DNA of 44,055 nt from Bacteroidota bacterium (GTDB lineage Bacteria > Bacteroidota > Rhodothermia > Balneolales > HLUCCA01), in the NCBI GenBank assembly GCA_020832235.1, contig JAFIEZ010000001.1, positions 1 to 44,055 on the forward strand, in the 5' to 3' direction. The notes under the pieces are model-generated. The model was given only the letters and a program-made list of their open reading frames with translations, was not told the DNA's origin and ran no database searches. The translations under genes and the position numbers were made by a program. Of this stretch, positions 1 to 27,802 are shown piece after piece. Position 1 is the stretch's first letter. Each line of letters begins with the position of its first letter.

Positions 1-360
1 TGTTTCATTATCAATTTCTTTAACGTGTTCCGTGAATAGGGCTACTTCAAAAAAGTACTGATTACTCTTGAATATTGAGACAACATACCCATCATCTACG
101 TCTCGGATATTTTCACACTTTGGGTGAAACTCCAGCCACTGAATTTCTTCAGGTGGAATAGCCTGAGCCGTAATGTCCTCATAGGAATGCGGGAAACTAT
201 AGGTGGCAAAGTCAACGAGATAGTCGTACGCTTCCTGATTGAAGGGCGGACAGGGATGTCCGTGTACCCCAAATTCGGTTGAAACCTCAATACCCGGAAC
301 CGTTTTGCTCATCGGTATGGCGAGAATTCCTATCAGGAATAAAAGGATGGATGTTTTCAT
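1..360 (-). CDS. Small secreted protein, partial (paralogue of the 452-892 gene)
   Basis: The frame starts with ATG at 360 and stays open to the window edge (120 codons seen, no stop), so the gene is truncated by the window. Residues 1-20 form a plausible signal peptide (MKTSILLFLIGILAIPMS), so the product is probably periplasmic or surface-located. It is clearly related to the neighbouring 452-892 product: both have CPP followed by an E-A-x-D-x-L segment, a PxEIxW segment, a second cysteine about 40 residues later and a KSNQY motif. It is the last visible member of cassette 1, downstream of the JAB lipoprotein gene, and is separated from its paralogue by 91 bases holding a strong hairpin. 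No known family recognised. An immunity or partner role for the upstream effector-like protein is inference from position only. Confidence 0.75.
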   Translation of the reverse strand, partial: MKTSILLFLIGILAIPMSKTVPGIEVSTEFGVHGHPCPPFNQEAYDYLVDFATYSFPHSYEDITAQAIPPEEIQWLEFHPKCENIRDVDDGYVVSIFKSNQYFFEVALFTEHVKEIDNET

Positions 361-451: not shown

Positions 452-892
452 TTAGAGAGAAAATACCCGAATACGATTCAGGTTTAAATCCAAAATATTC
501 ACTCTATCTGTACCCAATTTTATTTCAACTATATTTCCATCTTCTACACGTACAGGATTTCTATGCATAGCTAGAATAAAGTAGTACTGATTACTCTTCC
601 AAAATGTGAGAAACATCTCTGATTCAGGATTATGAACCATATGCTCGCATCGGATGTGTCGCTCCACCCAGACAATTTCGGATGGCGATACAGCCTCAAC
701 GGTAACACCCTGCGCTGTATGAGGCAACGAGCTCGCTACAAACCGTTTTAACAGGTCATGCGCCTCTTCGCTATAGGGTGGACAAGCGGGTTGTTGGACT
801 GTATCACCCTGCTCTATTTCAGTTACCTGAGAATAGGTGACTACCGGAAAAAGCAGTAAACCGAAGAGTAATAAAAAAGTATAATTTTTCAT
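452..892 (-). CDS. Small secreted protein, cassette 1 partner
   Basis: The product is about 146 aa. The frame could begin at 907, but the ATG at 892 gives a clean signal peptide (MKNYTFLLLFGLLLFPVV, then TYSQ as a likely cleavage site), so 892 is preferred. The mature protein has two cysteines (in CPPYSEEAHDLL and in IRCEH) at the same places as the paralogue at 1-360, which suggests a disulfide and a periplasmic location. It lies 34 bases downstream of the JAB-domain lipoprotein gene on the same strand, so the two are probably co-transcribed. The family is not recognised. By position it may be a cognate partner or immunity protein; this is inference. Confidence 0.75.
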   Translation of the reverse strand: MKNYTFLLLFGLLLFPVVTYSQVTEIEQGDTVQQPACPPYSEEAHDLLKRFVASSLPHTAQGVTVEAVSPSEIVWVERHIRCEHMVHNPESEMFLTFWKSNQYYFILAMHRNPVRVEDGNIVEIKLGTDRVNILDLNLNRIRVFSL

Positions 893-926: not shown

Positions 927-2407
927 TCACAAATTCCAGCAATGATTAAAATGTCGTTCGTACACACTCGGATTTGAGGGGTCGATTCTACGAACGGCCT
1001 GTCTGTCAATTACATACATGGGTTTACCTAACTGTCTGACAACGTTTCGATCACCTCTACTGACTATATATGCACTGTACGGGGGAAGTGTCCCAAGCTG
1101 ATATGGCTCCTCACCGGGTTCTAAAAGCGAATTCCAATAATCAACACATCGTTGGTCCATGATGACATCGCCCGGCGAAAAGGGATGGGTATGTAATATG
1201 GCCCTAACGGCGTCGCGCCGATTATTTCCATCAAACGGATTTCCTATATGGATATGGCAAGAAGACACACTCTCAGGTTCTATAGGTCTGAAAGATTCTC
1301 CTTCCGCCCAATAGTACTCTAGAAAAACCACCGACTCATTGCGCTGGTTATGAAGTAGCGGACTACTATTCGGCCCAAACGAAGCATTCCACATGCGGTG
1401 GATTTCGGCCTGAACATCCATTCTGTTCAAAAAAGAACTGTCATAATCACAGATTTTATCACAATCCATTCCGTCTGTGGCTGGATCACGACCCGTGTTC
1501 CCTCCCACGCATCGGTTCGGACACACCGGATCCCAGTAGGCATTCGGATCGCCGCCACAACTTGTGGGTACGTTCACTCCACCACTGGCTTCGTCGTCGT
1601 CTTCTTCGCACGACCAGCAACCACCTCCACCGGCCTCATCGTCGTACCAATCATCCTCCTGACCAGAATCGTAGTAACATCCCATGAATGTATCACCTAA
1701 ATAATGGTCGCCATATTCGCCCTCAGCACCACCCGTTTGCCACCACGATTGCCAGTAGCATACCCATGAACCGGCGGTTTGAGCAGTCGCTCCTCCTTGT
1801 TGAACGCGTTCAAACCCGTGTGCATCCAATAGCTTATATTCAGGGAGTAACCAACGGGCATACCCTGCAAAGGCTGTTTGTGTTCGGGGCAACAAAGCTA
1901 TATTCATTCGCAGAATGCCGGAATCGTCTTCATTGGGTAAAACATAGATATACAGCTCACGGTTACCGCCAGACTGATGATCTTCCGAGTGATGAAAGTG
2001 CAATTTCCTATAGGCATAATGGTAAAACCCGCCGGTGGAGTCGGCCACAACAAACAGCGAAATGTAGCGCTCGTTGTGGATGTCGGCTACCGATTCGATG
2101 TAGGCGCGTAGTTCAGCGTGATCCAGGTTTAGTTGGGGTGCAGTACCGGCTAACGCGCTTCCTGACTTGCCACGGTTCTCGCCCGGGGGAACCACTCGCA
2201 CTTCAGGCGAGCTATTTCCGATTTTGGGTAAAACCGTAGTGCCGCGTTTGGGAAGCTCGTCGGGTGATAGAGAAGATTTCGGGTTCAGGGATGAGGTGAC
2301 CCGTTCACAGCCGGTCCAACCGGCAATTAGCAGTAAGCCCAGGATAATCGCACCGAGCGGTAACGCGCGATGACGCGATAATCTGGAGGGGGGGGGGATT
2401 TTCTCAT
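927..2407 (-). CDS. Phase-variable lipoprotein with C-terminal JAB/JAMM domain (phase-off as sequenced)
   Basis: The main reading frame is open from 927 to just downstream of a C10 run; its only conventional internal start is a GTG at 2201. The frame upstream of that GTG encodes a lipoprotein-like signal sequence (hydrophobic GAIILGLLLIAG, then WTGC, an imperfect lipobox). It would start at ATG 2407 if the run were C11 or C8; with C10 the ATG frame stops after about 25 codons. Numbered in the on-phase form (493 aa): signal and lipidated Cys near residue 34, an SPDELP linker, an N-terminal module near 85-190 shared with the two other large proteins, an acidic Cys/Gly-rich linker with GGGGCWSCEE, a Cys motif ending CVGGNT, and a C-terminal domain with HTHPFSPGD near 406-414. 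That motif matches the HxHP...SxxD part of the JAMM zinc site, with an upstream Glu in FLEYYW. Peptidase activity is inferred. Confidence 0.7.
2011..2264. repeat. N-terminal-coding repeat, copy in cassette 1
   Basis: This stretch is almost identical, without visible indels, to 7943-8196 (constant offset 5932) and encodes the start of the N-terminal module in both large genes. The flanking coding sequence diverges on both sides, so the two genes share a conserved block between variable ends. Confidence 0.85.
2388..2397 (-). repeat. Homopolymer C10 tract, candidate phase switch
   Basis: There are ten consecutive G on the plus strand, that is C10 on the coding strand, directly after ATGAGAAAAT. 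In-frame reading into the lipoprotein signal peptide needs 8, 11 or 14 C. The homology with the cassette 2 leader ends exactly at this tract. An indel error in the assembly would look the same. Confidence 0.8.
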
Positions 2408-2779
2408 AGATTGAATATCTTTGTTTCTATTGACGTTAGGTGGGTCAATGAACCCATCCGATCTGCCTCGCCATTCCGGTACTCTTTATGAGGAAATACA
2501 CCATGCGTGCCCGGAAGCGGAAGCACCCCGGGGCGCTGAGCCGGTAATGCACCAGGCGCAGCGTCTTTTCCCGGGGAAGGGATTCACTAACCGTGTAACC
2601 GCAGCTTTTCACAGCATCGATTACACTATATAGAGTATTTCGAGGGGCATTTGTGACAAAAAAATTTTGACAAGCGTGTTTAGCAGGAGCTAAATTGGCT
2701 TTGGGATCCAAATTACTGCGATTTTTATGGTGAAAATTCCTGCCATAAATAAAAGGGCGGATGTTTTTATGATGGGCAT

Positions 2780-2815
2780 AAAAAAGCCCCGAGCATATTG
2801 CTAATAGCACGGGGC
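2780..2815 (-). terminator. Rho-independent terminator after cassette 2
   Basis: Read on the minus strand, GCCCCGTGC and GCTCGGGGC form a stem around a short loop (one mismatch), followed directly by TTTTTT. It lies 92 bases past the stop of the 2907-3440 gene, so it would end the cassette 2 transcript before the cassette 1 leader. An identical element is at 5434-5470. Confidence 0.85.
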
Positions 2816-2906
2816 ATCTGAACTATCTAAATCTGAGGTCAGATTGAAATATGTTTACTTTCAAGCAGAGATTATTGTACCGACCTAAAAGCATTGCATA
2901 GCGGAA

Positions 2907-3440
2907 TTATGTGAGTCTCATCCAATATATAACTGATTGAATAACGCCATTACTGCTTATTAAAATATCTATGAATTCAACTTCACTTACTTCGATACTC
3001 AAATAACCCCTTGTTTCTGGATTTGGGTCTGATTGCTTAACTGCCCATGACTTCGGGAAGTGCTCGGCCAGTCCATCGGCAAGGTCGCCTACACGGATAT
3101 CGACGCCGTTCACACGTGCAAATATAGATTGGTCCTTAATTTCCACATAATGATATCGAAAACCGAAATCCTCATAGAATTGAAGTTCCGAGACCCCATA
3201 GGTAAGCGTGATGAGTAAACCAAACCCGACATCACCAAAATGTTCCTCCGTTTCTTGAGTCGGAGTGCCCATTGCCTTCCTCACCTGCGTTGCCGTACGA
3301 CCGATTGAGTTGCCGGAGCTTGTATGCAAGGTAAACGTTTGTGCCTGATCGATTTCAGGCATTTCTTGTGCATTTAAGTTTAGAGCCCATACCATTAGGC
3401 TGGTCAGAAGCACTACTTTAAAGCCGATAGTTGTTTTCAT
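2907..3440 (-). CDS. Small secreted protein, cassette 2 partner
   Basis: The product is 177 aa, with a signal peptide at residues 1-24 ending in LNAQ and no further membrane segment, so it is probably periplasmic. It starts 20 bases after the stop of the M23 lipoprotein gene and is followed by a terminator, which makes a two-gene unit. It shares the segment NGVDIRVGDLAD and a C-terminal region with the 5562-6077 product; the last 50 or so residues of the two are identical, while their N-terminal halves differ. No characterised family recognised. The one-to-one linkage to an M23 peptidase suggests a cognate inhibitor, chaperone or immunity protein; this is inference. Confidence 0.8.
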   Translation of the reverse strand: MKTTIGFKVVLLTSLMVWALNLNAQEMPEIDQAQTFTLHTSSGNSIGRTATQVRKAMGTPTQETEEHFGDVGFGLLITLTYGVSELQFYEDFGFRYHYVEIKDQSIFARVNGVDIRVGDLADGLAEHFPKSWAVKQSDPNPETRGYLSIEVSEVEFIDILISSNGVIQSVIYWMRLT

Positions 3441-3460: not shown

Positions 3461-5067
3461 TTAGTTTTGATTACAAGGATCTGGATTTACAGGGGTTGCT
3501 GTAGAATCAGTTGAGAATTGGGTAAGAAGAAACGGTTCTGGGTTCACCAAAAAGACCCTCGACATACTTGAAAGTGTACTTTCTGTGCCCATTTCAACAT
3601 GCACGTGGGTGGTAACTCGTCTACCACTTGCTGTGTTTGGAATCCCAGACCTGCCACAATAACCGATAATATCGCCCTGTTTAAACTTCCCATCCGCGGG
3701 TACTGGCGGTCTATTTTGCAGGTGCGCTATTCCAAAGTTATAACGTGTTCCATCTATCATTGTCCAACCCCGCAAATAATTACCATAACCTACACCTTGC
3801 AAGAATCCAGTATTTACATTATCTAAATCGAAGGGAGCATAAATAGGATCTCCTACGTTGCACGTTAAATCAAGACCGTGGTGAGCGTCTAGGCCATTAT
3901 TACGAGCAGCACGGTCTTCGTCTGTACAATTTGGTCCTTGCCAACCACCAGAAGCACCTCCTGGCGATACACCCTCCATACACGGCCGAAACCGCCCTCC
4001 TGTTTTACCTGAGGCTCCCGAACTGGTGATTTCGGGGTTTTTAACCACATCACCAGCACAGGGTATGTTCAGATTGTTACAATCTGCATCAGCTGGGGCG
4101 GCAAATCTTTGCGTATCCCCGCCCACGCACCGGTCGCAGTGGTCTTTGAAGGCATTTCCATCCAGTACCCCATTGCAATCATGACTTGGAGCTACCGAGC
4201 TTCCGCCATAGCAGGCATGTGGATCTGTAAAGCAATGTATCAATCCATACCCATCGCCTTTATCAGAATCACCGCCACAAAACAGGTCATCACCAGCACA
4301 CAACTCAAACTCTGTAGCCGGCGGGCGCTCAGAATCTACAAATATAGAATCCACGCAATATTCTGGTCCGAATGTCTCAAAACCCATGCCATCCAGCGAC
4401 CAGCACCACTGTTCATTTGAATCACGTTGAGTCGTGGCACCCAAACCTTTTTGCATAGAAGTGTGTACAGGTCGAAGCCTGTCACCGGGAATAGGCGCGT
4501 CAAGCACTGTTCTTAGCGCACGAAATGCTGCCGGTGAATCTGGAATTCGTGCCGCCATGATATGCTTAATACCCTCTTCGGTGATGCGCGTGTAAACCAC
4601 CGTTCTTGTGCGCCCATCGGCATAGTCAATGGACGCCGAGGTGAATTCCAATTTTACATAACCGTAACGCCAGACCTGCTGCGTACTATCGGGCACGCCT
4701 ATAAGACCGAAATGCTCCTCGTCCAGGGTGTGTTCCAACTGAGTCAGTAATTGGTGCAGGGCCACTCCATTGATAAGAGGCTCGGGAAGATTGGCCGATT
4801 TGTAGCGTTGATCCGCACCTTTGGATACGGGGTGTAAAGCAACGTCTACCGAGTTGTTATTGATAACCGGAAACGGTGTGGTTCCGGTGAGAGGGAGGTC
4901 GCTCGGGGATACATCAGCATCCACAGAGAACGAGGTCGGACTAAACTGACAGGAGGCGGCAAGGCTCATAAAAACGAGCGAAAGGATTAGCCAGCGGCCA
5001 CGCCAACTGCACAGGAGTGTATGCTCACGCAAACCTGCTGGTAAATTAGGGGGGGGGATTTTCTCAT
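3461..5067 (-). CDS. Phase-variable lipoprotein M23 metallopeptidase (phase-off as sequenced)
   Basis: The main frame is open from 3461 to past 5032 (a TTG there is the only conventional internal start). From ATG 5067 it is reached only if the C run is 7, 10 or 13 long; it is C9 here, and the ATG frame stops after 26 codons. The on-phase product (535 aa) begins MRKSPPP like cassette 1, then has a signal segment ending LAASC, a good lipobox (Cys about 40). The N-terminal module is distantly similar to the other two (SPSDLP, FxxPD, PxxPAAFRALR). A Cys-rich linker with DHCDRCVGGDT follows. The C-terminal LytM/M23 domain has HHGLD near 396-400 and HVH near 488-490, matching the HxxxD and HxH zinc ligands. 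The family cleaves peptidoglycan peptide bridges. The small partner gene lies 20 bases downstream. Confidence 0.8.
5049..5057 (-). repeat. Homopolymer C9 tract, candidate phase switch
   Basis: There are nine G on the plus strand (C9 on the coding strand) directly after ATGAGAAAAT, the same leader as at 2398-2407. The lipoprotein frame needs one more C. The sequence downstream of the tract is unrelated to cassette 1, whereas upstream it is nearly identical. Confidence 0.8.
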
Positions 5068-5433
5068 AGATTGTATGTATTTGTTTCTATTGATGTTAGC
5101 TGGGCCAATGAACCCATCCGATCTGCCTCGCCATTCGGTACTCCAAACGAGGAAATACACCATGCGTGCCCGAAAGCGGAAGCCCCCGGGGCGCTGAGCC
5201 AGTGATGCATCAGGCGCAGTGTCTGTTCCCGGGGAAGGGATTCATCGACCGTGTAACCGCAGCTTTTCACAGCATCGATTACACTATATAGAGTATTTCG
5301 AGGGGCATTTGTGACAAAGAAATTTTAACAAGCGTGTTTAGCAGGAGCTAAATTGGCTTTGGGATCCAAAGGGCTGCGATTTTTATGTTGAAAATTCCTG
5401 CCATAAATAAATGGGCGTTTTTTATGATGGGCA

Positions 5434-5470
5434 TAAAAAAGCCCCGAGCATATTGCTAATAGCACGGGGC
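5434..5470 (-). terminator. Rho-independent terminator after cassette 3
   Basis: This is the same stem as at 2780-2815 (GCCCCGTGC/GCTCGGGGC with a T run on the minus strand). It lies 92 bases beyond the stop of the 5562-6077 gene, separating cassette 3 from the cassette 2 leader. Confidence 0.85.
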
Positions 5471-5561
5471 ATCTGAACTATCTAAATCTGAGGTCAGATT
5501 GAAATATGTTTACTTTCAAGCAGAGATTATTGTACCGACCTGAAAGCATTGCATAGCGAAA

Positions 5562-6077
5562 TTATGTGAGTCTCATCCAATATATAACTGATTGAATAAC
5601 GCCATTACTGCTTATTAAAATATCTATGAATTCAACTTCACTTACTTCGATACTCAAATAGCCCCTTGTTTCTGGATTTGGGTCTGATTGCTTAACTGCC
5701 CATGACTTCGGAAAGTGCTCCGCCAGCTCATCGGCAAGGTCTCCAACGCGGATATCCACGCCGTTGATATTCACCCGATAACTGGCATCTTTTAGCTCCA
5801 CAAAATACAGGTGGGATTGGTTTAACTGGTAAAAACCAGTAATAAACGAGAATTTGGATGCTCCATACTCCAGGTCCATACCATCATAATCAATGGTTTC
5901 GGCATCTGGGTTACCCATTATTTGCCGGAATGGGGTGTACTCCACGAAGATATTTTGACCGTTTTTGTATATAGCAAAGCTGGTTGCCGCGTCCAATTCA
6001 GGATGATCTTGCCCGTAAAGGAACACGGGACAAAGTACGAGCAGAACCAATATGAAGAGTTTTAGTTGTGTTTTCAT
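5562..6077 (-). CDS. Small secreted protein, mosaic paralogue (cassette 3)
   Basis: The product is 171 aa from ATG 6077. A longer frame to 6131 exists, but it would run through a hairpin and bury the signal peptide, so 6077 is chosen. Residues 1-22 are a signal peptide (LVLLVLCPVFLYGQ). The first two thirds match the adjacent 6211-6744 product (shared SFAIYKNGQNIFVEY and DASYRVNINGVDIRVG). The last 50 or so residues are identical to the cassette 2 partner at 2907-3440. The gene is therefore a recombination mosaic of two family members. Probably periplasmic; function unknown. Confidence 0.8.
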   Translation of the reverse strand: MKTQLKLFILVLLVLCPVFLYGQDHPELDAATSFAIYKNGQNIFVEYTPFRQIMGNPDAETIDYDGMDLEYGASKFSFITGFYQLNQSHLYFVELKDASYRVNINGVDIRVGDLADELAEHFPKSWAVKQSDPNPETRGYLSIEVSEVEFIDILISSNGVIQSVIYWMRLT

Positions 6078-6210: not shown

Positions 6211-6744
6211 TTATGTTAAGCGCATGCTGTAACTAATTTGTCTGATCACACCGGTCGAGGGATTGATTATAATTGCAAACCCACTCATTTCGTCAATTTG
6301 GAGCAACACTATATCATTTTTAGGATACCCATCACCCGAAGGCCAGTTAAATCGTCGGGCTGCCCATGACTTCGGGAAGTGCTCGGCCAGCTCATCGGCA
6401 AGTTCTCCAACGCGGATATCCACGCCGTTGATATTCACCCGATAACTGGCATCGTTGAGCTCCACAAAATACAAACCAGATGGGTCGGTGTCGTAAAAGC
6501 CAAGAATGAACCAAAATTTGGACAACCCATACTGCATGTGTATTGCACCCCCATCAATTTCTTCAACGACATCGGGTGCGCCCATTATCTCATGGAATGG
6601 AGCGTACTCCACAAAGATATTTTGACCGTTTTTGTATATAGCGAAGCTGGTGGCAACATCCAGTTCCGGATGGTTTTGCCCGTAAAGGAACACGGGACAA
6701 AGCATGATTAACACCAGTGTAACGTTTTTTAGTAGTTTTTTCAT
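6211..6744 (-). CDS. Small secreted protein, cassette 3 partner
   Basis: The product is 177 aa with a signal peptide (residues 1-23, ending VFLYGQ). It starts 24 bases after the stop of the truncated M23 gene, the same layout as cassette 2. It shares SFAIYKNGQNIFVEY, FVELNDASYRVNINGVDIRV and HFPKSWA with its downstream paralogue but has its own C-terminal 45 residues, ending SMRLT like the others. Probably periplasmic. The partner or immunity role is inferred from position and from one member being present per M23 gene. Confidence 0.8.
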   Translation of the reverse strand: MKKLLKNVTLVLIMLCPVFLYGQNHPELDVATSFAIYKNGQNIFVEYAPFHEIMGAPDVVEEIDGGAIHMQYGLSKFWFILGFYDTDPSGLYFVELNDASYRVNINGVDIRVGELADELAEHFPKSWAARRFNWPSGDGYPKNDIVLLQIDEMSGFAIIINPSTGVIRQISYSMRLT

Positions 6745-6768: not shown

Positions 6769-8133
6769 TTATTGTTGTTCTTGTCCGCAAGGATCCTCGT
6801 TTATCGGAGTCGCAGACGTATCTTTTGAAAACTGTGTAGCTAAAAAAGGCTCTGGATCGACTAGTTTTGTACGATAATAGGTATGACTGCCATTTTGTCT
6901 ATCCACACCAACTATCGTAAGGGCGGTCCCCATTTCGAGATGCACATGGGTTGTTACACTAGGCCATGTAATCCCAGACCGGCCACAATAGCCGATAATA
7001 TCTCCCCTCTTTACAGAACCTGTTGCTCGTCCTACTGCTTGTAGGTGCGCTGCGCCAAAATTATAGCTCACCCCATCAATGGTTGTCCAGCCTCGTACGA
7101 AGTTTCCGTATCCTCCAACAAAACCCGTTTCAAGTCCATCCATATCAAATGGGGCATACAAAGGTTCTCCTTCTGAACAGGATAAATCGAGGCCATAATG
7201 TTGTGTAGCTCCCCCATTACGAACAGCACGGTCTTCGTCTGTACAAGTTGGTCCTTGCCAACCACCAGAAGTACCTCCTGGCGATACACCCTCCACACAT
7301 GGTTTGAACCTTCCACCTGTTTTCCCGGAATTACCTGGACTGGTGATATCGGGGTTTTTAACCACATCCCCGGCGCAGGGTATGTTGAGATTGTTACAGT
7401 CATCGCCGGGGTTAGCTCGATTCAAATCAGTATCCCCGCCTACACATCGCGCTGGACACACCGGATCCCAGTAGGCATTCGGATCACCGTTACATCCACT
7501 TGGCGGTATATTGGAAGAACCTGAGGATTCCCCGGCTTCGCATGACCAACAAATTCCTCCACCGCTGGTTTCATCGGTACTGTCTACTATTGAGTCAACA
7601 ACACAATGCTCCACTATGACAACCTCAAAGCCATCCCACCAGTTATCACCCAGATTAACAAATTCTGAGGTGAAGTAACATGTTTGTTCGGTGGAATCAA
7701 ACTGCAGATTTAGAGATTTGCCATTTTCCTGATAAGCACTTTGATTTTGTCTTGGTGTTGAATTTTCATGAAATGGCAACAACCACCGCTGATAATCTTC
7801 GAAGGCCGAGCGGGTACGTGGAATCAACCCCACATTCATGTGAAAGACTCCTTCACCGGTGTTGTTGGGGCGTACGTAAATAAACAGCTCACGTTCGCCT
7901 TTTGATAGTTCCTCTTCTATGGGATAAAAGTTCAACGTTTCGTAGGCATAATGGTAAACCCCGCCGCTGGAGACGGCCACAACAAACAGCGAAATGTAGC
8001 GCTCGTTGTGGATGTCGGCTACCGATTCGATGTAGGCGCGTAGTTCAGCGCGGTTGAGGTTTAGTTGGGGTGCAGTACCGGCTAACGCGCTTCCAGACTT
8101 GCCACGGTTCTCGCCCGGGGGAACCACTCGCAC
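6769..8133 (-). CDS. M23 metallopeptidase, 5-prime truncated cassette (no start or signal peptide)
   Basis: The open frame gives 454 aa from a GTG at 8133 and continues upstream without a start codon to a TGA near 8244. The N-terminal module (residues 1-130) matches cassette 1; the 5-prime 230 or so bases are nearly identical. The linker has ICWSCEAGESSG and a motif ending CVGGDT. The C-terminal M23 domain matches cassette 2 and has HYGLD and HVH as zinc ligands. Upstream, the lipoprotein signal, C tract and ATG present in the other cassettes are missing: sequence jumps at CGGG from the mature-protein frame into the leader repeat. As it stands the protein could be made only in the cytoplasm from a weak internal start, so this is probably a silent or decaying copy, possibly a donor for gene conversion. 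Confidence 0.75.
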   Translation of the reverse strand: MRVVPPGENRGKSGSALAGTAPQLNLNRAELRAYIESVADIHNERYISLFVVAVSSGGVYHYAYETLNFYPIEEELSKGERELFIYVRPNNTGEGVFHMNVGLIPRTRSAFEDYQRWLLPFHENSTPRQNQSAYQENGKSLNLQFDSTEQTCYFTSEFVNLGDNWWDGFEVVIVEHCVVDSIVDSTDETSGGGICWSCEAGESSGSSNIPPSGCNGDPNAYWDPVCPARCVGGDTDLNRANPGDDCNNLNIPCAGDVVKNPDITSPGNSGKTGGRFKPCVEGVSPGGTSGGWQGPTCTDEDRAVRNGGATQHYGLDLSCSEGEPLYAPFDMDGLETGFVGGYGNFVRGWTTIDGVSYNFGAAHLQAVGRATGSVKRGDIIGYCGRSGITWPSVTTHVHLEMGTALTIVGVDRQNGSHTYYRTKLVDPEPFLATQFSKDTSATPINEDPCGQEQQ

Positions 8134-8196
8134 TTCAGGCGAGCTATTTCCGATTTTGGGTAAAACCGTAGTGCCGCGTTTGGGAAGCTCGTCGGG
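7943..8196. repeat. N-terminal-coding repeat, copy in cassette 3
   Basis: This is the counterpart of 2011-2264 at a constant offset of 5932. It ends at CGGG, exactly where sequence switches to the leader repeat. Confidence 0.85.
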
Positions 8197-8391
8197 GCGC
8201 TGAGCAGGTAATGCACCATGCGCAGCGTCTGTTTCCGGAGATAGGATTCACTAACCGTGTAACCGCAGCTTTTCACAGCTTCGACTACACTATATAGAGT
8301 ATTTCGAGGGGCATTTGTGACAAAGAAATTTTGACAAGTGTGTTTAGCAGGAGCTAAATCGCCTTTTGGAGCCAAATTACTGTGATTTTTT
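8194..8391. repeat. Inter-cassette direct repeat, partial copy 3
   Basis: This matches 2530-2727 at a constant offset of 5664 and lacks the C tract, the ATG and the terminator part. The open frame 8082-8375 runs across the junction and is not considered a gene. The 279 bases between 8134 and 8412 otherwise hold nothing I can identify. Confidence 0.8.
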
Positions 8392-23124: not shown

Positions 23125-24516
23125 TTAGCCTGCATCACGTACCCGCTCAACCAAGGCAGCCAACACCAATACTGATGGAGAGGTCACCGTAACGGGCGAT
23201 TTGCGGTCGCTCAATATGATTTCCAGGAGATTTCGGGCAGGATCGGCAATCACATCTACCACTTTGTTCAAACGATATTCTCGTGTGCGGGTATCGCCGG
23301 TAGTTTCGATGAACAACATCCGTCGATTGGTTATGATCACCTTGCCTTCCAGCTCCGTTTCGTAGCCCAGCTCACGATAAACCACCTTATCTTGCTGAAA
23401 TCGATTCAACACCCGTTCGTTCAGAAGGCGGACAGGCTCTATAACTCGGTAGGCAATTTCCCCGCGCACCAGCGGAACACCCGGATTGTCCAATTCATCT
23501 AAGGGTTGATCCATTTCATGGCGGATTTGAATAGCCGCCTCCATGAGTCCGCGTTCAGCCTGTATGGATGCAGCCGGGTCTTGCGATGCTTCGTCGAGCC
23601 CGAGCTCATCAATGAGCAGCAGCAAGCCCCCCTCCTCCTGCTCAGATAACAGATGATCTTCCAGGGCTGTCTCCAGTTCTTGACGGAATAGCGATTGCCG
23701 TACGCTTCGGGCAACATCCGCATCCAAAACCATGTGTGCTTCGATTTGCTCAAGCATGGACTTCCAGTATCTCGGCTTTGCCTCAGCATAGAGACACTCG
23801 TCGATAGCTTTTTCTACAAAAACAATATACCAGCGATGATGAAAACGGGGTTTGTAATCCTCCGGAACAGATGCATTAAACGCCTGCAGGGCTTTCAAAA
23901 TGGTTTCAGCAGACCGCTGAGAACCGGCATCTAGCCAAGCTTCCATTTGGTCGGTAAAAGCATACGCCTTGTTCATGCGCTGTTGATGCTGATGCCGGCC
24001 TCGAAAGGCAATGACCAAGGGTACCGTCAGCGATGCCAAAAACAACCAAAAATTAAAAAAGAGCAGCCATGCGGCAACGAGCAAGCTCAGAATGAGCGGA
24101 CGACGAATTTGACTGGATCCTCCAGGGGGGGGAGGCGGCAAGATTCGATCGGGCAGGTCTTGGGCGGCAGAGGGATAGGTAACTCCCGTGTCTTTGAATA
24201 AATCTGTACTACCGCCAGCGGAGGTAACGGGATGAAGCCTCTCGCCTGCGATGCCCTCTGCCGAACTCACCCCCGCCTGTTGCTGCCAAGCCCTGTTATC
24301 ACCGGAATCAGAACCTGCAGATCGCCCCTTACGACGGCCCGAATTCAGATTCTTTCGATAATATACCCCATGACGACCGCCATGCACATAGGGCATACCC
24401 CGGCTGTTCAGTCCCAACCGGGCACCTGTTATACCTGCTGAAATTCCAACACCTCCCTTGGAAAGGTTAAACCGAACCGGTCCGGTTTTAAACGCTTTTC
24501 TCAGGAAAAATGCCAT
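23125..24516 (-). CDS. DUF4236-domain protein with two membrane segments
   Basis: The product is 463 aa. Residues 1-55 are a DUF4236 domain (FNLSKGGVGISAGITGARLG, then YVHGGRHGVYYRK). A Pro/Gly linker (DRILPPPPPGGSS) follows, encoded partly by a C8 run at 24125-24132. Two adjacent hydrophobic segments near 138-170 make a membrane hairpin. The remaining 290 residues are mostly helical and acidic, ending with a beta-rich region (GKVIITNRRMLFIET) reminiscent of PH-like domains. Function unknown. It ends up 34 bases from the porin start region and 15 bases after the AbgT stop, so it may be co-transcribed with AbgT. Confidence 0.8.
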   Translation of the reverse strand: MAFFLRKAFKTGPVRFNLSKGGVGISAGITGARLGLNSRGMPYVHGGRHGVYYRKNLNSGRRKGRSAGSDSGDNRAWQQQAGVSSAEGIAGERLHPVTSAGGSTDLFKDTGVTYPSAAQDLPDRILPPPPPGGSSQIRRPLILSLLVAAWLLFFNFWLFLASLTVPLVIAFRGRHQHQQRMNKAYAFTDQMEAWLDAGSQRSAETILKALQAFNASVPEDYKPRFHHRWYIVFVEKAIDECLYAEAKPRYWKSMLEQIEAHMVLDADVARSVRQSLFRQELETALEDHLLSEQEEGGLLLLIDELGLDEASQDPAASIQAERGLMEAAIQIRHEMDQPLDELDNPGVPLVRGEIAYRVIEPVRLLNERVLNRFQQDKVVYRELGYETELEGKVIITNRRMLFIETTGDTRTREYRLNKVVDVIADPARNLLEIILSDRKSPVTVTSPSVLVLAALVERVRDAG

Positions 24517-26221: not shown

Positions 26222-27802
26222 TCAGAAGGTCAGCGACACACTTAAGGTGTACTGATTCACATGATTTCCGGCAATCATATGCATGTTTTTCCGCCATGTG
26301 CGCAAGGCTGCAATACCAATATCGCCCGCATTTCGCCGAATTACCCCGCGGTAGCCCAACGTATATTCATGATCAACATCCCCAAAAAGGTCAGGATATC
26401 GGAAAAATAAGTCTTCATCACGCCGCAAATAGTCGATAGTAAATCCGTGCATCCCCTTCGGCGAGTAATAGCGCATAAATATATTGAACGCCGTGCCACC
26501 AGGACCTATATACGAGCCCATGAGCTGACCATCATTGGTAAATCCGTGCTCTACAATACTATGAGTGTAATAGCTGGCCGGCGAGCGGATCTGTTCGGTA
26601 CGAGTGCTGCCATTGGTGCTGATTTCCGCGGTTAATGCCATTAGCGACCAATCGTTGAATGGATAAAAAGATGTTATCCCAAGCGTATAGGCTCTCGAAT
26701 GCTCAGGAGTAGGACCAAAAGGACCTCCTCCAAAGTCATTTCGGATGTATTCAAAGTACGCCTCAAAATTAACATCGGGGAAAGTCCACCGCCCCGTGAT
26801 GGAGGTCATCTGGAAGTAATCGTCGTTAAACTTGAATCCGTCCTCTGCTACGTTAATATCCGAGTTGAAATGATGCAGCGTTGCCAGCCAATCCGCCGAA
26901 AAAGGATCAAAATCCTGCCCTCGTTTCATGAACACCCTGTTGAAACCCAGCTGCAGTCCGGGCAGATAATGCACCACCCATCCGCCGGAAATACTGGTGA
27001 AATACCGAAGATTGTTCCCCCCAACGGCATCGAAATAGCCCGACTCTCGGGCGATGCCCCAGGTTTGCTTGAGCTCCAAATACCCAAGCCACAGGTAAAA
27101 GGCCCGTGGATTCTGGATATATGCGTGAAGTACACCGGGTGCGTTGGCCCCCATCGTTATCGTACTATACCACGATTGGCCGAGCTGCATGTTCTGACTG
27201 GAAATACCCGCCCGGAAGTTCCAAACGTGTATGTTGATATCACTCTGACCCGGATGCAGCCGAACAAAAGGCCGGTCGCCAAACCGCTGCACATAATCAA
27301 TATTATACTCGTAGGGATAGGCAAATTCGGAGCGCGGCGGCCGTTCCGACCACCAGTCTTCGCCGATGGGGAAGCTCCCCAGATCAAACGCCCGATTCTG
27401 CGAGTAGTACACCACAGGCTGCACGGTAATATTCAACACCCCGTACCGCGCCTGAAACCCAGCATGCAGCTCCTGGGTTATACCACGCCCATACCAAAGC
27501 GGACCATTATTACGGCTGCGATCGTACGCAGAGTTAAAGGTAAATCGGGTGTACACGGGTAGTCTACGAATACCATCTCCATCAAGCCGATTATCGTACA
27601 ATCCCCACCAATCGTTTTGCACTTCGTCGGGAGCATCATATCGGATGAAATCAAAATGATTGTAATACAGCGGAATGGAATCCTGACGGAGCTGCAATAG
27701 GCGCATGTAGTCGTACTGGTCACTGCCCGGCGTTATTACCTGGGCTGCAAGCGGCGAGACCTTGATGCATATCAGAATAAGAAGCGTAAAGATTTTCATC
27801 AT
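26222..27802 (-). CDS. Capsule assembly protein Wzi family, outer-membrane barrel
   Basis: The product is 526 aa with a signal peptide (FTLLILICIKVSPLAAQ). Family-like segments are RLQLRQDS-type N terminus, LWYGRGITQELHAGFQ, QPVVYYSQN and WGIARESGYFDAVGGNN. The alternating strands and the final VNQYTLSVSLTF fit an outer-membrane barrel. Wzi-type proteins attach or organise capsule polysaccharide on the surface. The start overlaps the stop of the ABC exporter gene by four bases (27799-27802), and two glycosyltransferase genes precede it, so it belongs to a surface-glycan operon. Confidence 0.85.
   Translation of the reverse strand: MMKIFTLLILICIKVSPLAAQVITPGSDQYDYMRLLQLRQDSIPLYYNHFDFIRYDAPDEVQNDWWGLYDNRLDGDGIRRLPVYTRFTFNSAYDRSRNNGPLWYGRGITQELHAGFQARYGVLNITVQPVVYYSQNRAFDLGSFPIGEDWWSERPPRSEFAYPYEYNIDYVQRFGDRPFVRLHPGQSDINIHVWNFRAGISSQNMQLGQSWYSTITMGANAPGVLHAYIQNPRAFYLWLGYLELKQTWGIARESGYFDAVGGNNLRYFTSISGGWVVHYLPGLQLGFNRVFMKRGQDFDPFSADWLATLHHFNSDINVAEDGFKFNDDYFQMTSITGRWTFPDVNFEAYFEYIRNDFGGGPFGPTPEHSRAYTLGITSFYPFNDWSLMALTAEISTNGSTRTEQIRSPASYYTHSIVEHGFTNDGQLMGSYIGPGGTAFNIFMRYYSPKGMHGFTIDYLRRDEDLFFRYPDLFGDVDHEYTLGYRGVIRRNAGDIGIAALRTWRKNMHMIAGNHVNQYTLSVSLTF

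What the first reader, a model, noticed from the sequence alone, without database searches (positions are those of the whole stretch)
2388..2407. C10 tract puts the JAB lipoprotein gene out of frame
ATGAGAAAAT is followed by C10. The downstream frame, open through a signal peptide (GAIILGLLLIAG then WTGC) to the stop at 927, is reached only with 8, 11 or 14 C. From ATG 2407 to 927 the length is 1481 bases, one short of a multiple of three. Homopolymer C runs early in surface-protein genes are classic slipped-strand switches.
Basis: partly seen in the sequence, partly recalled or inferred. Interest (0 to 1): 0.88.

Follow-up and report, generated by a model that had tools for sequence, protein, structure and literature searches.

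The report
Poly-C on/off switch before lipoprotein genes
In a bacterium of the order Balneolales, a family of toxin-like lipoprotein genes carries a run of 9 to 13 Cs just after the start codon that usually throws the gene out of frame, most likely a hypermutable on/off switch for proteins that come in toxin-and-immunity-like pairs.

Summary
ATG 2407(-) AGA AAA T is followed by exactly C10 (2397-2388). The 486-codon lipoprotein frame ending at 927 is entered only with C8, C11 or C14.

It is not isolated. A second lipoprotein in the window (5067-3461) has the same start with C9 and needs C10. Two sister species have it too: C9 needing C10, and C12 needing C13. All four are one C short. A fifth copy (C13, contig edge) is in frame but has AAG in place of ATG.

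Homopolymer miscalling is unlikely: in 444 kb of this genome 97 runs of 7 or more bases lie in frame inside long ORFs, with no true frame break. The bodies are under coding constraint.

The tract joins a shared module (promoter-like site, a ~188-nt leader with covarying RNA structure, ATGAGAAAAT) to divergent lipoproteins with swapped C-terminal domains (M23 peptidase or JAB-like), each followed by its own exported small protein, as in toxin-immunity pairs.

Best reading: slipped-strand ON/OFF switching of polymorphic toxin-like lipoproteins. The shared 'one short' phase leaves constitutive recoding open. Switching itself is not shown: no reads or second isolates were available. The JAB label rests on a motif only.

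The parts
2388..2397 (-). C10 tract, one C short of the lipoprotein frame
2398..2407 (-). start codon and shared ATGAGAAAAT before the tract
   Evidence: same ten bases in w2 and G002
927..2387 (-). lipoprotein 1 (w1): signal peptide and lipobox, conserved N-terminal domain, Cys-rich linker, JAB-like C-terminal domain (E351, H399, H401, S443, D446 of P0001); 486 codons open
   Evidence: lipobox pattern
2441..2628 (-). structured leader RNA upstream of w1 (hairpin plus long-range helix with compensatory changes)
2632..2659 (-). promoter-like site TTGTCA-N16-TACTCT, conserved in the leader copies (read by eye; not tested)
   Evidence: alignment
5049..5057 (-). second tract, C9, one C short of the lipoprotein 2 frame
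5058..5067 (-). second ATGAGAAAAT start
3461..5047 (-). lipoprotein 2 (w2): same N-terminal domain family, C-terminal M23 peptidase with HxxxD and HxH kept
   Evidence: (PF01551, 9e-06, just below the curated cut-off)
5101..5286 (-). structured leader RNA upstream of w2
2389..3110 (-). 722-bp direct repeat, copy 1 (partner-gene 3' end, intergenic region, leader, start), ending at the C tract
   Evidence: 94% identity to 5049-5765
5049..5765 (-). 722-bp direct repeat, copy 2, ending at the C tract
6769..8202 (-). lipoprotein 3 (w3): body with M23 domain; leader joined directly to about codon 40, so no ATG, C tract or signal peptide
   Evidence: (PF01551, 4.8e-08)
8183..8390 (-). truncated leader of w3
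452..892 (-). exported ~146-aa partner of the JAB-like lipoprotein (candidate immunity protein)
   Evidence: homologues follow the JAB-like gene in G001 and, weakly, in G065 and G073
1..360 (-). paralogue of the JAB partner, cut by the contig end
   Evidence: E 4e-26
2907..3440 (-). exported 177-aa partner of M23 lipoprotein 2
6211..6744 (-). exported 177-aa partner of M23 lipoprotein 3
5562..6077 (-). extra paralogue of the M23 partner

Best explanation
The C tract is most likely a translational contingency switch. Ribosomes start at ATGAGAAAAT. Slipped-strand mispairing during replication changes the number of Cs, and only one length in three enters the frame that encodes the signal peptide, lipobox and body; the other two end after about 10-45 codons. 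In this assembly both window loci are OFF, one C short. The switched genes look like polymorphic toxin-type lipoproteins: a shared N-terminal domain, exchangeable C-terminal enzyme domains (M23 endopeptidase or a JAB-like domain), and a cognate exported small protein downstream that could give self-protection. The loci with an intact 5' end in G000 and G002 share a leader RNA, and the tract is the junction between the shared 5' module and the variable body. Shown here: the out-of-frame tract, its recurrence in three species, intact and constrained bodies, domain swapping, partner linkage and a covarying leader. Inferred: actual length switching, surface location, toxicity, immunity, and any role of the leader.
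For: The same out-of-frame tract lies between the start and the signal peptide at w1 C10, w2 C9, G002:C5 C9 and G001:C87 C12, plus C13 at G000:C3; every family member that keeps its 5' end has it. More distant family members in another family of the order have ordinary in-frame lipoprotein starts without a C tract. Bodies are open over 478-537 codons; w1 against G001 differs at 34/31/64% of codon positions 1/2/3, and the M23 motifs and the JAMM-like motif are intact. All tract codons are CCC although CCC is 22% of Pro codons. Homopolymers are read correctly: 97 in frame and 0 true breaks in G000, the single flagged A7 being two adjacent genes; in G002 104 in frame, with two flagged sites that look like adjacent genes. 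Coding C8-C10 runs elsewhere in G000 are in frame. Three loci lie at contig ends next to or inside the tract. w1 and w3 share 73% identity in the N-terminal domain but have unrelated C-termini, and the partner gene follows the C-terminal type.
Against: No length variation within a strain or between isolates was seen, because no reads or second isolates were available. All four intact starts are in the same phase, one C short; chance gives a common phase about 1 in 27. The C13 copy is in frame but lacks ATG. Toxin and immunity roles rest on architecture alone.
Confidence: 0.62

Rival explanations
1. Constitutive recoding. The tract is held one C short and the lipoprotein is made at a low, fixed level by RNA polymerase adding a C (transcriptional slippage) or by -1 ribosomal frameshifting on C CCC CCC. 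The structured leader would then be part of a fixed low-expression design.
For: All four intact starts are exactly one C short although the required length differs (11, 10, 10, 13). A neighbouring lipoprotein on G000:C3 is also one base short, at an A7 (A AAA AAC). Slippage on A/T runs is an established recoding route (PMC3711429).
Against: Known slippage and -1 sites are mostly A/T runs. Lengths change by amounts not divisible by three, which a recoding site does not need. The C13 copy is in frame. The sample is small.
Confidence: 0.17
2. Assembly or sequencing error: the true tracts are in frame and were called one C too short.
For: All four are short by the same amount, and long C runs are hard to call. 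Three of the loci lie at contig ends.
Against: 97 and 104 in-frame homopolymers with no true break in two genomes, and coding C8, C9 and C10 runs read in frame in the same genome. Three separate assemblies agree on the phase.
Confidence: 0.13
3. Pseudogenes: the frame was lost by a single indel and the loci are decaying.
For: w3 has lost its start, tract and signal peptide; the C3 copy has AAG for ATG.
Against: Long open frames, strong excess of third-position change, intact catalytic motifs, and the same lesion in three species.
Confidence: 0.06
4. The tract is mainly a recombination junction: the shared module of leader, ATG and C tract is moved between lipoprotein bodies, and the frame is incidental.
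For: The 722-bp repeat, 94% identical, stops at the tract (2389/5049). C3 and G002 are 90% alike just after the tract but 70% just before it, and w1 and G002 the reverse.
Against: Does not by itself explain why the tract is kept in G001 with a different pre-tract sequence (ACTAAAG).
Confidence: 0.02

Closest known systems
Slipped-strand phase variation by homopolymeric tracts in coding starts (Neisseria poly-C/G genes such as nalP and mspA; Listeria inlA poly-A)
   Same: A mononucleotide run inside the coding sequence of an exported protein gene puts it in or out of frame; alleles differ in run length (PMC3723659 abstract; PMC2831843).
   Different: Here in Balneolales, where one full-text search found no report of phase variation; in a tandem gene family sharing leader, start and tract. 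Length switching not yet observed.
SitA/SitI lipoprotein toxins of Myxococcus (outer membrane exchange)
   Same: Lipoprotein with related N-terminus, unrelated C-terminal domains and a downstream cognate gene, in repeated units (PMC5562445).
   Different: No sequence link was tested. The C-terminal domains are an M23 peptidase or a JAB-like domain, and the partners carry signal peptides. No sitB-like gene was seen; TraA/B were not looked for. The SitA paper does not mention phase variation (no occurrence of the term).
[quoted passage not shown] 2012)
   Same: E, H[ST]H, S, D signature in a C-terminal domain; lipobox plus conserved N-terminal domain with polymorphic C-termini (PMC3482391).
   Different: No Pfam match, including DUF4329. 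The HTHP-to-SxxD spacing is long (about 40 residues) and the fold was not confirmed.
Maf system of Neisseria (MafA lipoprotein, MafB toxin, MafI immunity)
   Same: Chromosomal toxin-immunity cassettes with an exported lipoprotein, in a genus rich in phase-variable genes.
   Different: In Maf the toxin itself is not the lipoprotein; no homology tested.

Membership tests
Slipped-strand phase-variable (contingency) gene | Homopolymer >= 8 in the coding start, out of frame with an intact downstream frame | tested here: met
   C10 at 2388-2397 and C9 at 5049-5057; 486 and 528 codons open
Slipped-strand phase-variable (contingency) gene | Run kept at the same place in relatives with differing lengths | tested here: met
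   C9, C12 and C13 in G002, G001 and G000:C3
Slipped-strand phase-variable (contingency) gene | Reversible length change within a strain, with ON and OFF phenotype | not testable with these tools
   no reads, no second isolates, no expression data
Slipped-strand phase-variable (contingency) gene | Alleles of a family spread over all three phases | tested here: inconclusive
   four intact starts all one C short; a fifth in frame but without ATG
Polymorphic toxin-immunity system | Conserved N-terminal domain with unrelated C-terminal domains | tested here: met
   w1 and w3, 73% in the N-terminal domain, JAB-like against M23
Polymorphic toxin-immunity system | Cognate downstream gene that follows the C-terminal type | tested here: met
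   JAB-like with the ~146-aa family in G000, G001, G065, G073 (the last two weak, E 0.003 and 0.0075 but ranked above 394 decoys); M23 with the ~177-aa family
Polymorphic toxin-immunity system | Toxic C-terminal domain neutralised by the partner | not testable with these tools
   needs expression tests
Peptidase family M23 (w2, w3) | Profile match and HxxxD / HxH motifs | tested here: met
   PF01551 9e-06 (w2, 26.2 bits, below the 28.7 cut-off) and 4.8e-08 (w3, above it); motifs read
JAB/JAMM domain (w1) | Profile or fold match | tested here: not met
   no Pfam or NCBIfam match; low-confidence models, no PDB fold match
JAB/JAMM domain (w1) | E, HxH, SxxD motif | tested here: met
   HTHP and SxxD in four homologues, E in the three that cover it
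SitA (Myxococcus) | Lipoprotein transferred by TraA/TraB outer membrane exchange, with sitB | not tested
   TraA/B not searched; no sitB-like gene seen upstream of w1 or w2
Bacterial lipoprotein | Signal peptide with lipobox Cys in the frame after the tract | tested here: met
   lipobox pattern found in w1, w2, C3, G001 and G002

The most novel reading that the evidence does not exclude
A modular, tandem system of polymorphic antibacterial lipoproteins (M23 and JAB-like) with exported immunity proteins in Balneolales. Each is gated at the signal peptide by a hypermutable C tract and preceded by a common structured leader RNA, so that a population shows a changing mix of contact or vesicle-borne toxins while immunity genes stay in frame. 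Alternatively the one-short phase marks a new C-tract recoding site.
Probability: 0.35. Interest if true: 0.75.

Novelty: new variant of a known kind. Interest (0 to 1): 0.6.

Why it matters
Poly-C contingency switches are best known in host-adapted pathogens, where they are linked to immune evasion. Here the same device appears in an order where one full-text search found no report of phase variation. It is attached to what look like toxin-immunity lipoproteins and shared by tandem cassettes through a common leader. If true, stochastic ON/OFF display of antibacterial enzymes would be a population-level strategy in bacterial competition. The downstream partner genes have their own in-frame starts, so OFF cells could keep protection. 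It can be tested directly with amplicon sequencing and a reporter.

Tried and rejected
(1) Another start codon in the lipobox frame: none upstream in w1, w2, G001 or G002, and in G001 a stop lies two codons before the tract. (2) Systematic homopolymer miscalls: rejected by controls in two genomes. (3) Leader as a known RNA: no Rfam match. A model of the leader found it only at these loci in G000 and G002 (E <= 4e-24), the other hits being chance-level. (4) The leader as coding sequence ending in the start: its frame is not kept between copies (1-base indels). (5) The GAAAATCCCCCC pattern elsewhere in the order: hits outside the genus whose context was printed are not at lipoprotein starts. (6) Genome-wide excess of C runs: none (9 against about 7.8). 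(7) Finding the continuation of the G002 contig that ends in C11: contig ends show only JAB-partner pieces, so its lipoprotein is in an assembly gap. (8) JAB fold: two structure predictions were of low confidence and the PDB fold search gave nothing. (9) More members by scanning GTDB contigs: only the G001 record, MAG Balneolales bacterium PBR18_bin42; viral contigs none. (10) PADLOC: no match.

Full report
Observation. On the minus strand the sequence reads TCTATGAGAAAAT, then ten C (2397-2388), then TCCAGATTATCG. Read from ATG 2407 the product ends after 26 residues. The lipobox frame runs 486 codons from 2387 to the stop at 927; it needs 8, 11 or 14 C and has no ATG, GTG or TTG of its own upstream of the tract. 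C/G runs of nine or more are not in excess in the genome (nine loci, about 7.8 expected), so the length alone is not remarkable. The place is: three of the nine lie at the same site of one gene family.

A family, not one gene. In the window a second lipoprotein (5067-3461) begins with the same ten bases and C9, and needs C10. A search of the genome with the 381-bp leader, and with a profile of the N-terminal domain, finds two further relatives in G000. w3 (8202-6769) has its leader fused to about codon 40, so start, tract and signal peptide are missing. The copy at the start of contig C3 has C13 and an in-frame signal peptide, but AAG in place of ATG. In the sister species G002 a homologous start has C9 and needs C10; a second leader copy ends its contig inside C11. 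In G001 (identified as MAG Balneolales bacterium PBR18_bin42) the start is ATGAGAAAAACTAAAG followed by C12, and it needs C13. So the tract is kept in three species while its length and the bases around it change. Family members in another family of the order have plain lipoprotein starts.

Not a reading error, not a wreck. In 444 kb of G000, 97 homopolymers of seven or more lie in frame inside long ORFs; the one apparent break is two adjacent genes. In 400 kb of G002 the count is 104, with two apparent breaks that look like adjacent genes. Coding C8, C9 and C10 runs elsewhere in G000 are in frame. Between w1 and G001 codon positions 1, 2 and 3 differ at 34, 31 and 64%, and the enzyme motifs are intact, so the bodies are maintained. 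In the first 27 codons (signal peptide) this bias is weak, as expected for fast-evolving signal peptides, so those codons add little.

What is switched. w1, w2 and w3 share an N-terminal domain of about 200 residues and a Cys-rich linker, then differ. w2, w3, C3 and G002 end in a peptidase M23 domain (HxxxD and HxH present). w1 and G001 end in a domain with E..HTHP..SxxD conserved in homologues, the signature listed for Tox-JAB-2 (PMC3482391). No profile and no fold search confirms the JAB label. M23-type genes are followed by a ~177-aa exported protein, JAB-like genes by a ~146-aa exported protein. Weak homologues of the latter (E 0.003 and 0.0075, ranked above all 394 decoys) follow JAB-like genes in two genomes of another genus, where the one lipoprotein that is complete has a different N-terminus. 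This is the layout of polymorphic toxin and immunity pairs, and being a lipoprotein it resembles SitA of Myxococcus (PMC5562445). Toxicity is not shown.

The 5' module. A 722-bp direct repeat (2389-3110 and 5049-5765, 94%) ends exactly at the tract. Sequence identity changes abruptly across it: w1 and G002 are 90% alike before and about 60% after; C3 and G002 are 70% before and 90% after. The tract is therefore also the joint between a shared module and variable bodies. Within the module, about 188 nt of leader folds into a hairpin and a long-range helix; all pairs in these two helices are kept in four sequences, four of them with changes on both sides. Over the whole structure 97.6% of cells pair against 33-46% when partners are slid. 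With only two species and four sequences this is good but not final evidence of a leader RNA. Rfam has no match, and a model of it finds no convincing copy beyond these loci.

Mechanism. The best explanation is slipped-strand switching of translation, with both window loci OFF in this assembly. Two things hold confidence at 0.62. Length variation within a strain could not be examined. And all four intact starts are exactly one C short although the needed lengths differ (11, 10, 10, 13); a common phase has a chance of about 1 in 27. Two side cases share the sign: a lipoprotein on G000:C3 with A7 that needs A8, and a Methyltransf_24 gene in G003 with C10 that needs C11. A fixed recoding site (transcriptional slippage or -1 frameshifting, PMC3711429) therefore stays open at 0.17.

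Novelty. Homopolymer switches and lipoprotein toxins are each known. Their combination, in tandem cassettes with a common structured leader, in Balneolales, was not found in the papers searched. The library is open-access only, so this is weak evidence of absence.

Noticed in passing
window 2441-2628 and 5101-5286 (-): About 188 nt of leader with covarying RNA structure (hairpin plus long-range helix) between a promoter-like site and the start codon; no Rfam match and no convincing copy outside these loci.
   Followed up: partly
L025 4058-5085 (G000:C3): A 341-codon lipoprotein frame preceded by ATGATTC and A7 that is one A short; its upstream region shares about 115 bp (promoter part) with the leaders of the C-tract family.
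   Followed up: partly
L101 (G003:C147, around 466-475): A Methyltransf_24 gene in another genus of the same family is split by a C10 tract, again one C short; another candidate switch or a broken gene.
   Followed up: partly
window 8183-8202 (-): Leader of the third copy is joined directly to about codon 40 of the lipoprotein, deleting start, tract and signal peptide: a silent or decayed copy that could serve as donor for recombination.
   Followed up: partly
L079 6183-6193 (G002:C2 end); L025 1-78 (G000:C3 start); L080 1-85 (G001:C87 start): Three contigs end inside or within about 75 bp of the C tract, and two G002 contigs share a JAB-partner end, so further copies are probably hidden in assembly gaps.
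   Followed up: yes
window 3041-3110, 5696-5765, 6360-6429 (-): Partner genes of the M23 type are mosaic: 3' parts of two of them are near-identical while their 5' parts differ, as if by recombination.
   Followed up: no
window 26222-27802 (-): Capsule assembly protein Wzi domain in the same window.
   Followed up: no
window 24125-24132 (-): C8 run inside an intact ORF (23125-24516), in frame; used as a control.
   Followed up: yes
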